Source: Prochloron sp. SulCav_FS08_3_32_3330
GTDB taxonomy: Bacteria; Cyanobacteriota; Cyanobacteriia; Cyanobacteriales; DYNF01
DNA: 64,000 nt
Reading direction: 5' to 3'
NCBI GenBank assembly: GCA_020721205.1
Contig: DYNF01000004.1
Location: 1 to 64,000, forward strand
The notes below the pieces were generated by a model. That model saw nothing but the letters and a program-made list of their open reading frames with translations, was not told the DNA's origin and ran no database searches. The translations under genes were made by a program, and so were the position numbers. This document shows, piece after piece, positions 2,505 to 59,818 of the stretch (position 1 is the stretch's first letter; every line of letters begins with the position of its first letter).

Positions 2505-5390
2505 ATGGTGTCAAACAAAGAACAAGAATTTAAGGAAGCTCTCAACAGTGGCAATCTTGCTGAGGCATTCTTATTGGCGATGAATAGTGCTGTGGAATTA
2601 AAAATTACCACTTGGGTAGAATCATCTCAAAGTGAGTTAAAAGAGGATTCAAAAGACACCAAACCTCATCAAGAGAAAGAAACTCCCGGACATAGCCTCA
2701 AAAGTAGGATTAATTTAATTCAAGGGGAAATTGAAAATAAAATCGGTGATCAATTCCTAACTAACTCAGAACTATCTCAAATATTACCTTTTCATTTCCA
2801 TCAAGTTTCTTTAAGTAGTCATAATTTTCGGAATAATTTACAAAGTTTACAAAAACTTTTTGGGTTATTAGCGGCGTTAAATCAACAGGATAACTCTCAA
2901 CAATTACTAGAACTTTTAAATTTAGAAAATCAATTTATTTCTGAAACTCCTTCAGAAATTCCCCTTCCACCTTTAGAGTTAGGAATAAAAACAAAAACTC
3001 CTCCGGTGGATGTGATTCCTGTGCCTGTGATTCCTAAGTCTCCGGTAGAAACAAAAGTTACTCAAGTTCCCCTTGAAATTGAACCAAAAGAGGAAAGATT
3101 AGAGGAATTTAAGTCAGAAATTAAAGCAGAAATTAAAGAACAAATTAAAGCAGAAATTAAAGAACAAATTAAGGCAGAAATTAAAGAAGAACCGGAATTA
3201 GAATTAGTTACTCCTGCCCCAGAAATGCCTGTTTCTGATTTAGATGAAGAAGATTGGGAAGAATCTAATTTTGTTCCTTCGGCTATATCTTTTGAAGAAG
3301 AAACTGTTAAGATTAGCAGTGAAATTGAGGAAAAAAATGATTATTCTCTTGATATTTTAAGTCTGGATGATTTAGAAGAATCTCCTGAAGAAGATTGGGG
3401 TGATGTGGCACTTTCTCATGATAATTTAGACTTAGATTTAGAAATAGAAGAAACAGGTTTAAATGAGGAGGATATTCCTGCTTTAAAATTAGAAGCTTCT
3501 GCTGAAGAATTAGCTGATTTTGATATTCCTGTAATTGAATTAGAGGAAGTTCCCGAGGAGGAGGATTGGGGTGATGTGGAACGTCCTCATGATATTTTAG
3601 AATTAGATTTAGAAGGAGAAGAAACTAATGTAGAAATAGGTTTAAGAAAGGCTGAACTTCCTCCTTTAAAATTAGAGTCAGAAACGGAGATTGAACAACT
3701 TGATTTAGGAGAAATTTCTGAGGAGGAAGATTGGGGTGATTTGGATATTCCGTTAGAAACTCCTCTTGATAATTTAGAGTTAGAAGAAGGTGCTGAAATA
3801 ACTTTTGATCATGATCTTTCTAGCACATTCGATTTAGAAAAAGAGGAAGAAACTCCTTTCATTGCTTTAGAGGAAACTCCGACATTTGAAGCGGAAAATT
3901 GGGATGAAACGGATCAAGTTTTAGGTTTAGAATCGGAAGATTTAGAGTTAGAAGAAACGCCTCAATTAGAGGAAGAAAATTGGGATGAAACGGATCAAGT
4001 TTTAGGTTTAGAATCAGAAAATAATTTTGATTTAGATGATTTAGATAATCTTCCTAGTTTAGATTTAGAGTTAGAAGAAACGCCTCAATTAGAGGAAGAA
4101 AATTGGGAAGAAACTGATCATAATTTAGGTTTAGAATCAGAACATAATTTTGATTTAGGTGATTTAGATAATCTTCCTAGTTTAGATTTTGAATCAGAAG
4201 AAACGCCTCAATTAGAGGAAGAAAATTGGGAAGAAACTGATCATAATTTAGGTTTAGAATCAGAAAATGATTTTGATTTAGGTTTAGAATCAGAAGATTT
4301 AGATAATCTTCCTAGTTTAGATTTAGAGTTAGAAGAAACGCCTCAATTAGAGGAAGAAAATTGGGAAGAAACTGATAATGTTTTAGGTTTAGAATCGGAA
4401 AATAATTTTGATTTAGATGATTTAGATAATCTTCCTAGTTTAGATTTAGAGTTAGAAGAAACGCCTCAATTAGAGGAAGAAAATTGGGAAGAAACTGATC
4501 ATAATTTAGGTTTAGAATCGGAAAATAATTTTGATTTAGGTGATTTAGATAATCTTCCTAGTTTAGATTTTGAATCAGAAGAAACGCCTCAATTAGAGGA
4601 AGAAAATTGGGAAGAAACTGATCATAATTTAGGTTTAGAATCGGAAAATAATTTTGATTTAGATGATTTAGATAATCTTCCTAGTTTAGATTTAGAGTTA
4701 GAAGAAACGCCTCAATTAGAGGAAGAAAATTGGGAAGAAACTGATAATGTTTTAGGTTTAGAATCGGAAAATAATTTTGATTTAGATGATTTAGATAATC
4801 TTCCTAGTTTAGATTTAGAGTTAGAAGAAACGCCTCAATTAGAGGAAGAAAATTGGGAAGAAACTGATAATGTTTTAGGTTTAGAATCGGAAAATAATTT
4901 TGATTTAGGTTTAGATGATTTAGATAATCTTCCTAATTTAGATTTAGAATCAGAACATAATTTAGAAGATTTTACAGGCTGGACTGAGGAAGAAGAAAGT
5001 ACATCTATTCCTAATTTTGATTCTCTCAATTTAGATGATAATGAAGATTGGATTGAAGAAGGTGACGAAAATCCTTTTGCAGAAATTTCTTCAGAGGGGG
5101 ATCTTACGGATTTAAACTTAAATGAAAATGACAGTTTACAGAGTAATCCTTTTGAAGAAACTTCCTTAGATGAAAATGATATTAATTCTTTAGATGATTT
5201 AGGAAATTTTGAACATTTTGACTTAGGAGAAAATGAGGAGGAATCACTTTTTGATGATATAATATCTGAAACAGAAGATAAGAATATTTCTACTTTATCC
5301 TCTGATGATTTATCTCTATTAGATGATGATTTATTTAATAGTTTAACTACTGTTAAACCTCGTCCATCTAATCCAAAAAAGTCTAATTAA
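2505..5390 (+). CDS. 961-aa highly acidic repeat protein with N-terminal ELKITTWV domain
   Basis: Full ORF; N-terminal domain homologous to 2005-2361; long Asp/Glu-rich tandem repeats ETPQLEEENWEETDHNLGLESENNFDLDDLDNLPSLD. Confidence 0.85.
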   Translation: MVSNKEQEFKEALNSGNLAEAFLLAMNSAVELKITTWVESSQSELKEDSKDTKPHQEKETPGHSLKSRINLIQGEIENKIGDQFLTNSELSQILPFHFHQVSLSSHNFRNNLQSLQKLFGLLAALNQQDNSQQLLELLNLENQFISETPSEIPLPPLELGIKTKTPPVDVIPVPVIPKSPVETKVTQVPLEIEPKEERLEEFKSEIKAEIKEQIKAEIKEQIKAEIKEEPELELVTPAPEMPVSDLDEEDWEESNFVPSAISFEEETVKISSEIEEKNDYSLDILSLDDLEESPEEDWGDVALSHDNLDLDLEIEETGLNEEDIPALKLEASAEELADFDIPVIELEEVPEEEDWGDVERPHDILELDLEGEETNVEIGLRKAELPPLKLESETEIEQLDLGEISEEEDWGDLDIPLETPLDNLELEEGAEITFDHDLSSTFDLEKEEETPFIALEETPTFEAENWDETDQVLGLESEDLELEETPQLEEENWDETDQVLGLESENNFDLDDLDNLPSLDLELEETPQLEEENWEETDHNLGLESEHNFDLGDLDNLPSLDFESEETPQLEEENWEETDHNLGLESENDFDLGLESEDLDNLPSLDLELEETPQLEEENWEETDNVLGLESENNFDLDDLDNLPSLDLELEETPQLEEENWEETDHNLGLESENNFDLGDLDNLPSLDFESEETPQLEEENWEETDHNLGLESENNFDLDDLDNLPSLDLELEETPQLEEENWEETDNVLGLESENNFDLDDLDNLPSLDLELEETPQLEEENWEETDNVLGLESENNFDLGLDDLDNLPNLDLESEHNLEDFTGWTEEEESTSIPNFDSLNLDDNEDWIEEGDENPFAEISSEGDLTDLNLNENDSLQSNPFEETSLDENDINSLDDLGNFEHFDLGENEEESLFDDIISETEDKNISTLSSDDLSLLDDDLFNSLTTVKPRPSNPKKSN
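3957..4960 (+). repeat. Eight tandem 123-bp (41-aa) coding repeats, one unit expanded to 135 bp
   Basis: acgcctcaattagaggaagaaaattggga at 3957, 4080, 4203, 4338, 4461, 4584, 4707 and 4830. Confidence 0.95.
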
Positions 5391-6302: not shown

Positions 6303-6415
6303 ACAAATAACTAATAACCAATAACCAATAACCAATAACCAATAACTAATAACTAATAACTAATAACTAATAACAAATAACAAATAACAAATAACCAATA
6401 ACTAATAACCAATGA
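6303..6415. repeat. Heptamer short tandem repeat array (AATAACC/AATAACT/AATAACA)
   Basis: Direct reading: continuous 7-bp period. Confidence 0.95.
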
Positions 6416-7128
6416 CTAAACCTCTTTTATTAGATTCTTGTTTTGAAATTATTGAAGATAAAATTGATCCGAAAACTTCAATTATTCAGGGAATTTCTTT
6501 TCATCTCAATCAAAAAACTTTAATCCAAATTTTAACAGCAAAACAGCAAAATATTTCTTTAAAAATCTCAGCTTCTATTTTAAATCAAATTAGATATTAT
6601 TGTTTAATTGATCAAGATCAATTATTTAATCTTCAATCTAATCTGAATTTTATTACTTATTTTGACTCAATTAATAATCAGAAACCTTTACTCAAAACTA
6701 CCCTAGGTTTAGAAGGAAATATTGTTAATCAAATTTGCGATCGCTGTTTAGAAAATGGGGATTTATTATTAAATATTACCCTTGCCCATTATTGGTTAAT
6801 TGAACAAATTTTAAAGGAAATAAAATTTCAATTTAAACCAGCTAAAGTTAAAAAATGGTTTAATATTATAGCGTGGATTATTGCCGTAATTATTGTTATA
6901 ATAAGTGTTATATTTAACCTTCCACATTTTCAAAATAATGTCTTATTATGGATCGCTCCTATCGTTGTTTGTTTTCTCTTACAATGGGGGATTCAAAAAA
7001 TATTATGGTTAAATATTCATTTAATTCGTCGTTGGCTATTAAAACAGACACTTTATGGACTTTTTTCCCGTCAACAAAAACAACAAAACCAAACTTTAAA
7101 TATATTAAGTGATTTAGGGTTATCATAA
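6412..7128 (+). CDS. Hypothetical membrane protein
   Basis: ORF; C-terminal half has two hydrophobic segments (WFNIIAWIIAVIIVIISVIFNL, VLLWIAPIVVCFLLQWGI). Confidence 0.65.
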   Translation: MTKPLLLDSCFEIIEDKIDPKTSIIQGISFHLNQKTLIQILTAKQQNISLKISASILNQIRYYCLIDQDQLFNLQSNLNFITYFDSINNQKPLLKTTLGLEGNIVNQICDRCLENGDLLLNITLAHYWLIEQILKEIKFQFKPAKVKKWFNIIAWIIAVIIVIISVIFNLPHFQNNVLLWIAPIVVCFLLQWGIQKILWLNIHLIRRWLLKQTLYGLFSRQQKQQNQTLNILSDLGLS

Positions 7129-21496: not shown

Positions 21497-21638
21497 TATA
21501 GCAATCCTAAATGAGTCGTGGGTAAATCAAATAATCTTAAAAAGAGGTTTAAAGTCCTGTCATAAAAGACCAATGACCAATGACTAATGACAAAAGCGAT
21601 CAATCAATTGGTAGCACAATCTATTTAGGATCGCTATA
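21497..21638. mobile_element. MITE-like element family 2 (142 bp), full copy with 16-bp TIRs and heptamer repeat core
   Basis: tatagcaatcctaaat ... atttaggatcgctata; core caatgaccaatgactaatgac. Confidence 0.75.
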
Positions 21639-22571
21639 TTAACCATCTTGATTAATTTGTTTAATTAACTCTTGTAAAATAGTTTCAGCTTGATCATTTT
21701 CCACTTGACAAGTACCCGCATTTTGATGACCACCGCCACCATATTGTAACATTAATTCCCCAATATTTGTATGAGAAGAACGGTTTAAAATAGACTTACC
21801 TACCGCAAAAACTGTATTTTGTTCTCTTAAGCCCCATAACACATGAATGGAAATATTACATTGAGGATAAAGGGCATAAATCATAAAGCGATTTCCCGTA
21901 TAAATTAAGTCTTCTTCCCTTAAATCTAAGACCACTAAATTATCATAAACTTTAGCACATCTTTTAATTTGTTCTTTGAAATTTTCCGCTTGTTCAAAAT
22001 ATAATTCACTTCTTTCTTGTACATCAGAAACTTTTAAAATTTCCTCAATATTATGATTTTTACAATAGTCAATTAATTCCATCATTAACTGATAGTTAGA
22101 AATGCGAAAATCTTTAAATCTTCCTAATCCTGTTCTCGCATCCATTAAAAAGTTTAATAATACCCATTCTTGAGGATTTAAGATTTCTTCTTGATTAAAT
22201 TGTGCTGAATCTGCTTTATCTACAGCGTTCATCATCTCATCAGAAATCGTGGTAAATCTTGATTTTCCACCGTAATAATTATAGACAACTCTGGCGGCGG
22301 AAGGGGCATTGGGGTCTATAATATGATTGTCTTTAATTTCTTTATTTCTAATAGTTTCACTAGCATGATGATCAAATGCCAAATAAACCCCTTCAACATA
22401 AGGTAAATTAGTGGTAATATCTTGATTGTTAATCTCAATTTTCCCATCCTGCATATCTTTAGGATGGACAAATTTAATTTCATCAATTAAGTCTAATTCT
22501 TTGAGTAAAACGCCACAGACTAAGCCATCAAAGTCACTGCGAGTTACTAATCTATATTTTGGATTTGTCAT
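21639..22571 (-). CDS. DHH-family phosphoesterase (exopolyphosphatase-related)
   Basis: VTRSDFDGLVCGVLLKEL, AFDHHASE, GGGGHQNAGTCQV. Confidence 0.88.
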   Translation of the reverse strand: MTNPKYRLVTRSDFDGLVCGVLLKELDLIDEIKFVHPKDMQDGKIEINNQDITTNLPYVEGVYLAFDHHASETIRNKEIKDNHIIDPNAPSAARVVYNYYGGKSRFTTISDEMMNAVDKADSAQFNQEEILNPQEWVLLNFLMDARTGLGRFKDFRISNYQLMMELIDYCKNHNIEEILKVSDVQERSELYFEQAENFKEQIKRCAKVYDNLVVLDLREEDLIYTGNRFMIYALYPQCNISIHVLWGLREQNTVFAVGKSILNRSSHTNIGELMLQYGGGGHQNAGTCQVENDQAETILQELIKQINQDG

Positions 22572-29108: not shown

Positions 29109-29220
29109 CTACGAATGCACCTAAATGTTATTTGTCATTTGTCATTTGTCTTTTATGACAAGACTAATCGCCTCTTTTTAAAATTATTTGATTTGCGATG
29201 ACTGATTTAGGATTGCTATA
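29109..29220. mobile_element. MITE-like element family 2, opposite orientation, internally shortened
   Basis: ...gtcatttgtcatttgtcttttatgacaagactaatcgcctctttttaaaattatttgatttgcgatgactgatttaggattgctata. Confidence 0.65.
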
Positions 29221-37340: not shown

Positions 37341-37578
37341 TTTGTTGTTGGTCATTTGTCATTGGTCATTTGTTATTGGTCATTTGTTATTTGTTGTTGG
37401 TCATTAGTCATTAGTCATTTGTCATTTGTCATTGGTCATTTGTTATTTGTTATTTGTTATTTGTCATTTGTTATTTGTCATTTGTCATTGGTCATTGGTC
37501 ATTTGTTATTAGTCATTTGTTATTAGTCATTTGTTATTGGTCATTTGTTATTGGTTATTTGTTATTAGTTATTTGTGA
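37341..37578. repeat. Large heptamer short tandem repeat array (TCATTTG/TCATTGG/TTATTTG/TCATTAG)
   Basis: ~235 bp of continuous 7-bp periodicity. Confidence 0.95.
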
Positions 37579-42070: not shown

Positions 42071-42165
42071 TTGTCATTTGTCCTTTGTCATTTGTCCTTT
42101 TTAACAAGACTTTAGCTCTGTTTAAAAAATAATTGATTTGCCACAACCTATTTAGGATTGCTATA
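42071..42165. mobile_element. MITE-like element family 2, partial copy
   Basis: gtcatttgtcctttgtcatttgtcctttttaacaagactttagctctgtttaaaaaataattgatttgccacaacctatttaggattgctata. Confidence 0.65.
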
Positions 42166-42269
42166 TACATTATCATCAATAACAAATGACAAATGACAAA
42201 TAACCAAGAACAAATGACAAAGGACAAATGACAAAGGACAAATAACTAATAACAAATAACTAATTATTT

Positions 42270-44693: not shown

Positions 44694-44780
44694 TATAGCA
44701 ATCCTAAATTAGTCGTGGACTAATTAATTGATCGTTTTTGTCATTTGTCATTTGTCGTTTGTCATTTTTAACAATAATTT
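44694..44780. mobile_element. MITE-like element family 2, copy lacking a clear second TIR
   Basis: tatagcaatcctaaattagtcgtggactaattaattgatcgtttttgtcatttgtcatttgtcg matches the reverse complement of the right half of 21497-21638. Confidence 0.6.
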
Positions 44781-44847
44781 AACCCTTTTTTCTTAAAATC
44801 TGTTAATCTTAAAACTGTAATTAATTTGATTAAAAAAATAGACTGTT

Positions 44848-50642: not shown

Positions 50643-50813
50643 GATTTTATCACCTAAAAATTGAGATTTGCTAAGGTAAAATTTTTGTTATTAAAACTCG
50701 CATTTTTACGAAAAATTAAGCTTTGAGATTGCTTCCTATCGTCGCAATGACATAAGAGCGTAAGTCTTACTTCCGAATAACGAATAACTAATAACAAATA
50801 ACTAATAACTAAT

Positions 50814-59490: not shown

Positions 59491-59818
59491 TTTTTTGATT
59501 TTATAGTGCTACGCATAATTGTTAGGACGTTATTTATAGTAATGCCATTTGATTTGTAAAAATTGTGGAACGGGCATCTTGCCCGTAACAGGAAACTAGA
59601 AGCCTGTTCCACTGTTCACAACCCAATTAGAATTGCTATATTAAATCCTGTAGAGACGTAATATATTACGTCTCTACAAATGTCCTAACATTAGTTAGTC
59701 GTGCTATAAATCCATTTAAAGTTATGATCAAAGTGTAGCTAATTGAAATAATATTTAATAGAAAAAAGGTGGGCATAACCCACCCTAATTTTAACTAATT
59801 TTAACTTTCTTTTAACCT

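What the first reader, a model, noticed from the sequence alone, without database searches (positions are those of the whole stretch)
21497..21638. 142-bp MITE-like element that carries the heptamer tandem repeats
The element has TIRs TATAGCAATCCTAAAT / ATTTAGGATCGCTATA (15/16). Left arm: gagtcgtgggtaaatcaaataatcttaaaaagaggtttaaagtcctgtcataaaag; then heptamers caatgac caatgac taatgac; then a right arm. Related copies lie at 29109-29220, 42071-42165 and 44694-44780. In each, the heptamer stretch is at the same internal position with different heptamer variants. This suggests at least some cyanobacterial short tandem repeats spread as cargo of a mobile element and then expand.
Basis: partly seen in the sequence, partly recalled or inferred. 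Interest (0 to 1): 0.65.

Follow-up and report, generated by a model that had tools for sequence, protein, structure and literature searches.

The report
Jumping DNA that carries heptamer repeats
A tiny transposon of a family found across cyanobacteria carries a run of 7-base repeats to new places in the genome, and the run then gains or loses whole repeats after landing; this is one real route, though not the main one in this genome, by which these repeats spread.

Summary
The 142-bp element is real. It is a non-autonomous IS630-type MITE: ends TATAGCAATCCTAAAT, a target TA on both sides, no gene. The genome holds about 24 copies, 12 complete. Every copy has heptamers (GTCATTN or close variants) at the same inner place, 1 to 12 units in complete copies and up to 25 in a truncated one. 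Of the four copies named in the window only the first is complete. Full-length relatives with the same ends encode an IS630-type DDE transposase in Pseudanabaena and Nostoc; none was found in this assembly.

One insertion shared by two Okeania genomes differs by exactly 21 bp, three heptamers, so the count changed after insertion. Related sites without the element support insertion at TA.

Limits: about 90% of GTCATTN arrays in a random 0.8-Mb sample have no arms, and 22 of 60 same-order genomes have such arrays without this MITE. Carriage by MITEs is one route, not the general origin. A one-unit copy suggests growth from a seed. Tandem-repeat-carrying MITEs are known elsewhere.

The parts
21497..21638 (-). 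complete 142-bp IS630-type MITE carrying a heptamer array (array reads GTCATTN on the - strand)
   Evidence: both TIRs and both arms
21497..21512 (+). terminal inverted repeat (flanking TA included as first bases)
21623..21638 (-). terminal inverted repeat, 15/16 to the other; abuts the stop codon of the DHH-type gene at 21639-22571
21564..21591 (-). heptamer array: three GTCATTN units (21571-21591) plus degenerate GTCTTTT (21564-21570)
29110..29220 (+). MITE copy with a deleted left arm: degenerate TIR remnant 29110-29126, array 29127-29147, right arm and TIR to 29220
42073..42165 (+). MITE copy without left arm: array 42073-42100, right arm and TIR to 42165
44694..44791 (+). MITE copy with truncated right arm: TIR 44694-44709, left arm to 44739, array 44740-44767, right-arm remnant
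59614..59640 (-). TIR-like remnant, no array
   Evidence: left-arm profile E=0.004
37344..37574 (+). free-standing array of 33 heptamers without arms (counter-example)
6305..6416 (-). free-standing array of 16 mainly GTTATTN heptamers without arms (counter-example)
42177..42260 (-). separate 12-unit array just outside the 42073-42165 copy, in inverse orientation
50775..50809 (-). free-standing array of 5 GTTATTN heptamers without arms

Best explanation
The element is a non-autonomous derivative (MITE) of an IS630-type insertion sequence. A transposase acting on its terminal inverted repeats inserted copies at TA dinucleotides (ends and TA sites shown, the transposition reaction inferred). Its interior contained a heptamer-like seed (TTTTGTCATTCGTAACAAGAC) that grew by 7-nt slippage into a short GTCATTN array (inferred). 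The array was copied with the element to new sites (shown by shared inner position and subfamily-specific units), and it gains or loses whole heptamers after landing (shown for the sister family in Okeania, inferred here). Loss of an arm at the array edge can leave a half-element. Most arrays in the genome did not demonstrably arise this way.
For: About 24 copies, 12 complete, array always at the same inner place. Same ends on 1.1-kb elements encoding DDE_3/HTH_33 proteins. TA insertion: two elements inside heptamer arrays whose joined flanks restore the 7-bp period with exactly one TA; related unoccupied sequences for an Okeania copy. Within subfamilies A, B and B2 the units are no more alike inside a copy than between copies. 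Seed: one-unit copy C205 ends GTCATTC next to GTAACAA, and the same terminal GTCATTC closes the array in C60, C98, C196 and C154, whereas C at base 7 occurs in 1 of 314 inner units of the sampled arrays. Okeania/Hydrocoleum same-ended MITEs: 2-7 CCTGTTN units, lengths mostly in 7-bp steps. Shared insertion differing by 21 bp inside the array in a 1252-bp, 96.7% alignment.
Against: No IS630-type transposase in the own assembly. No close relative is held, so change after insertion could not be seen in the window's own family. Similarity between MITE interior and IS leader is not significant after correction. The one-unit copy could be a contraction rather than the ancestral state. Subfamily C shows within-copy similarity (p about 0.016), so local homogenisation also occurs.
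Confidence: 0.82

Rival explanations
1. Captured cargo: an ancestral MITE picked up a piece of an already existing chromosomal heptamer array, which it has carried since; there was no seed in the element.
For: The same GTCATTN unit type is common in the genome outside MITEs and in relatives without the MITE.
Against: The one-unit copy C205 and the MITE-specific terminal GTCATTC point to growth from inside. Okeania MITEs with the same ends carry other units.
Confidence: 0.25
2. Hot spot: the centre of a hairpin-forming MITE is a place where 7-nt duplications start and are tolerated; arrays arise there again and again from local sequence, and inheritance matters little.
For: Different heptamers at the centre of same-ended MITEs in different lineages and even at a matching place in Okeania elements. 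Elements fold well below shuffles with the array usually near the apex.
Against: Period-7 runs occur in 5.9% of foreign same-ended elements against 2.7% of adjacent flanks, a weak difference. Units follow subfamily in this genome.
Confidence: 0.25
3. Composite by recombination: arms and arrays were brought together by recombination between arrays at different loci, not by transposition of a unit.
For: Several incomplete copies (C98, C196, C154, C151 at 42 kb, C6, and C28 on the other side) lose an arm at or very near the array edge.
Against: All 12 complete copies have both arms around the array at a fixed place with conserved junctions.
Confidence: 0.05
4. Chance: heptamer arrays are so common that some fall near TIR-like sequences.
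For: Arrays are abundant.
Against: Same inner position and same junctions in about 24 copies; whole-element E-values to 8e-55.
Confidence: 0.01

Closest known systems
IS630-family insertion sequences and their MITEs
   Same: TA at both ends, same terminal repeats as 1.1-kb elements with DDE_3/HTH_33 proteins, short, no gene, many copies
   Different: No transposase found in the same genome; central heptamer array
BrickBuilt, a minisatellite-containing MITE of Porphyromonas gingivalis (PMC4596501), and tandem-repeat-carrying MITEs it cites in Xenopus, Donax and Lepidoptera
   Same: Tandem repeats of variable copy number inside a MITE, dispersed with it
   Different: 23-nt units in BrickBuilt; here 7-nt units, an IS630-type family with identified full-length relatives, and unit changes seen at a shared insertion
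Cyanobacterial short tandemly repeated heptamers (STRR; the name and the TTGGTCA type recalled from memory)
   Same: GTCATTG is the same repeat as TTGGTCA in another phase; arrays occur in many same-order genomes
   Different: Classical STRRs are described as free-standing; a minority here lie inside a MITE
Small dispersed repeats of cyanobacteria (Elhai 2008) and Nezha MITEs (Zhou 2008); neither paper is held, known from memory and reference lists
   Same: Small mobile repeats in cyanobacteria; SDRs are, from memory, linked to heptamer arrays
   Different: SDRs are 21-27 nt and enter arrays; here the array lies inside the mobile element. Ends were not compared with Nezha

Membership tests
IS630-type MITE | terminal inverted repeats shared with a transposase-encoding IS630-type element | tested here: met
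   same ends on L118 (1107 bp, 360 aa) and L192 (1129 bp, 353 aa), DDE_3 2.5e-13 and 4.2e-11
IS630-type MITE | insertion at TA with TA duplication | tested here: met
   joined flanks with one TA restore a heptamer period in C62 and in UBA11153; unoccupied related sites for Okeania L316. Shown for same-ended relatives, not for the window copy itself
IS630-type MITE | short, non-coding, multi-copy | tested here: met
   118-203 bp, about 24 copies
IS630-type MITE | transposase source in the same genome | tested here: not met
   no PF13358 hit and no hit of the L118 protein in the draft; not required of a relic MITE
Tandem-repeat-carrying MITE (BrickBuilt type) | tandem repeat of variable copy number inside the element at a constant place | tested here: met
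   1-12 units in complete own copies; 2-7 units, 7-bp ladder in Okeania
Tandem-repeat-carrying MITE (BrickBuilt type) | copy number varies between strains at the same locus | tested here: met
   met for the Okeania sister family: 137 vs 158 bp at a shared insertion; not testable for the window family, no close relative held
Cyanobacterial STRR heptamers | tandem 7-mers found in many cyanobacteria | tested here: met
   GTCATTN arrays in 22 of 60 same-order genomes; the STRR name is from memory
Nezha MITE | Nezha terminal repeats | not tested
   paper not held

The most novel reading that the evidence does not exclude
IS630-type MITEs act as nurseries of cyanobacterial heptamer arrays: a seed inside the element grows into an array, the element spreads it, and loss of arms at the array edge leaves free-standing arrays, so that a large share of present arrays would be MITE-born. 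Units are kept uniform in six positions and free in the seventh by a process not yet known.
Probability: 0.15. Interest if true: 0.75.

Novelty: new member of a known kind. Interest (0 to 1): 0.5.

Why it matters
Cyanobacterial heptamer repeats have long been used as strain fingerprints without a clear account of how they spread. Here one mobile-element family, in two groups of cyanobacteria with different heptamers, is shown to carry such arrays, and in one group the arrays change by whole heptamers after landing. That makes the question directly testable: compare unit number at shared insertions between strains. It also warns that MITE copy number and array number may be confounded in fingerprints based on these repeats.

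Tried and rejected
MITE interior as a deletion derivative of the IS leader: only 1 of 32 comparisons was notable (C105 against L084, 1 of 300 shuffles), not significant after correction. Hidden arm remnants beside free-standing arrays: profiles of both arms find none beyond the known copies in 0.86 Mb. Same arms in other genomes of the order: beyond the TIR none in 60 at E<=1e-3, and none in 293 at E<=1e-5 apart from the own genome. Plasmid collection: no match. Concerted evolution within each copy: the genome-wide signal is explained by subfamily differences, except in subfamily C. A hot spot in all same-ended MITEs: enrichment too small. My first count of zero heptamers in foreign MITEs looked only for GTCATTN and was misleading; a period-based scan corrected it. 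Literature searches for STRR gave no cyanobacterial source paper.

Full report
Observation. The sequence at 21497-21638 is as described. Read with the array as GTCATTN, the element is: TIR, a left arm of about 30 bp ending in ...GATCGCTTTT, the array, a right arm of about 50 bp beginning (in subfamily A) with ATGACAAGACTTTAA, and the second TIR. In the own genome (G000, 4.73 Mb, 209 contigs; window = C151:1-64000) the end motif has 56 hits at up to 2 mismatches, against 8 for the reversed control. A whole-element query gives a graded series of copies. I collected 24 arm-bearing copies; 12 have both ends (C4, C51 twice, C58, C87, C92, C105, C108, C136, C151 at 21.5 kb, C186, C205). The right arms fit one ancestor with three main types: A (ATGACAAGACTTTAA), B/B2 (RTAACAATAATTTAACC) and C (GTATCAGTATTTAGACC). 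Of the window copies only the first is complete: 29110-29220 keeps a remnant of the left end, 42073-42165 has no left arm, and 44694-44791 lacks the outer right arm.

What kind of element. Among them are same-ended elements of 1107 bp (Pseudanabaena biceps O153, L118) and 1129 bp (Nostoc carneum plasmid, L192) with 360- and 353-codon frames. Pfam gives DDE_3 at 2.5e-13 and 4.2e-11 and HTH_33 at about 1e-12, that is, IS630-type. The own assembly has no DDE_3 hit and no hit of the L118 protein, so the copies here look orphaned, with the caution that the draft breaks at repeats.

TA insertion. Of 109 complete same-ended elements tested, two sit inside heptamer arrays, and joining their flanks with exactly one TA restores the 7-bp period: C62:2319-2457 of this genome (AACAAA|TA|ACAAATAAC) and one in UBA11153 (GTTGA|TA|GTTGATA). 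For an Okeania heptamer MITE (L316), the flanks joined with one TA match related dispersed sequences that have no element at that point. So these MITEs carry heptamers, and some also land in heptamers.

The array as cargo. Every full right-arm match in the sample and window has units beside it. Unit numbers in complete copies: one copy with 1, one with 12, the rest 3-4 (a degenerate last unit not counted); a truncated copy reaches 25 (C28). Units differ between subfamilies (identity within copies 0.894, between 0.831, 0 of 2000 shuffles reach the difference), but inside subfamilies A, B and B2 they are no more alike within a copy than between copies (p about 0.16, 0.62, 0.87; C 0.016). That is what inheritance by transposition predicts. 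The one-unit copy C205 reads TTTTGTCATTCGTAACAAGAC; the same terminal GTCATTC is the last unit in C60, C98, C196 and C154, while C at base 7 occurs once in 314 inner units of sampled arrays. I read it as the seed, with growth on its left; this step is inference.

Generality. A period-based scan of other same-ended MITEs found other heptamers inside them: (CCTGTTC)n in Okeania SIO2F4, O. hirsuta and Nostoc T09, CCCATTG/CCTATTC in Okeania SIO3I5, CTGAGGA and CCTGACT in another Okeania family. Thirty-seven parsed copies carry 2-7 CCTGTTN-like units, and element lengths cluster at 123/124, 130/131, 137-139, 144, 151 and 158. One insertion is shared by SIO2C9 (C263:13985-14121, 137 bp) and O. hirsuta (C703:24759-24916, 158 bp): 1252 bp align at 96.7%, and the element differs by one 21-bp gap, three heptamers, inside the array. 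This shows a change of unit number after insertion; whether gain or loss is not known.

Limits. In an unselected 0.795-Mb sample 36 arrays of three or more units were found; 2 had a TIR nearby (2 of 18 GTC-type, 0 of 18 GTT-type), and profile searches found no hidden arms beside the others. In 22 of 60 same-order genomes GTCATTN arrays occur, up to 639 overlapping matches, while none has these arms. In Okeania most of 18 arrays examined also lacked this family's ends, though several lie in other repeated sequences. Across all same-ended foreign MITEs, period-7 runs occur in 5.9%, against 2.7% of the adjacent outside flanks. So MITE carriage is real but explains a minority of arrays.

Structure. 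Most complete copies fold far below shuffles (for example -42.8 against -22.0 kcal/mol for the window copy), and the array usually lies near the apex. This is ordinary for MITEs and may make the centre tolerant of length change; no more is claimed.

Unexplained. In subfamily A the arms differ 0.165-0.171 per site, unit positions 1-6 only 0.016, and position 7 0.635. Arrays in the sample show the same pattern. Slippage and drift alone do not predict a conserved core with one free base.

Comparison. MITEs that carry tandem repeats are known: BrickBuilt in Porphyromonas gingivalis, whose paper cites cases in Xenopus, Donax and Lepidoptera (PMC4596501). Work cited in PMC4679880 found heptanucleotide repeats the most abundant class of such repeats in most genomes and proposed polymerase slippage. 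Anabaena sp. 90 has 147 MITEs classed as type II because no IS in that genome matched them (PMC3542288), similar to the orphan state here. I have not found the link between STRR-type heptamers and an IS630-type MITE family in cyanobacteria described; the most relevant older papers are not held, so priority is not certain.

Noticed in passing
own genome: window, L215-L234 and sample L235-L294, all GTCATTN arrays: The seventh base of the unit is free (T 163, G 125, A 25, C 1 of 314 inner units) while positions 1, 2 and 6 hardly vary; in MITE subfamily A the six core positions differ ten times less than the arms. No explanation found.
   Followed up: partly
L415, L429, L433; L419, L437; L409, L434 (Okeania): CCTGTTN arrays also lie in at least three other dispersed repeat families, one ending CCTGCGCACAGCGCTATA.
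   Followed up: no
C62:2319-2457 (L005), C127:4398-4537 (L012), C202:40664 (L035) of the own genome: MITEs with the same ends but a different interior, two with the palindrome GAGTGTGAGCGTCTCGCTCACT; C202 has its right end replaced by a CAACTAT heptamer array.
   Followed up: partly
L002 (C28:45405), L271 and rows for C37 and C32: Heptamer arrays in head-to-head inverted pairs that could form long hairpins.
   Followed up: no
window 5410, 6285, 59572; about 20 sites in the 0.86-Mb sample: A dispersed palindrome ACAGGCATCTTGCCTGT, sometimes next to heptamer arrays (2 of 20 within 60 bp, about 0.2 expected).
   Followed up: partly
   Followed up: no
window 3938-4955: A run of eight 123-bp repeats, apparently coding (AGATTTAGAGTTAGAAGAAACG...).
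   Followed up: no
L161, L186 (Competibacteraceae UBA2788); L122, L160 (Oscillochloris bin): The same end motif in bins labelled as non-cyanobacterial; contamination or transfer not examined.
   Followed up: no
L422 (Okeania SIO2F4, G294:C606): A heptamer array and its left flank occur three times within 1 kb, in tandem.
   Followed up: no
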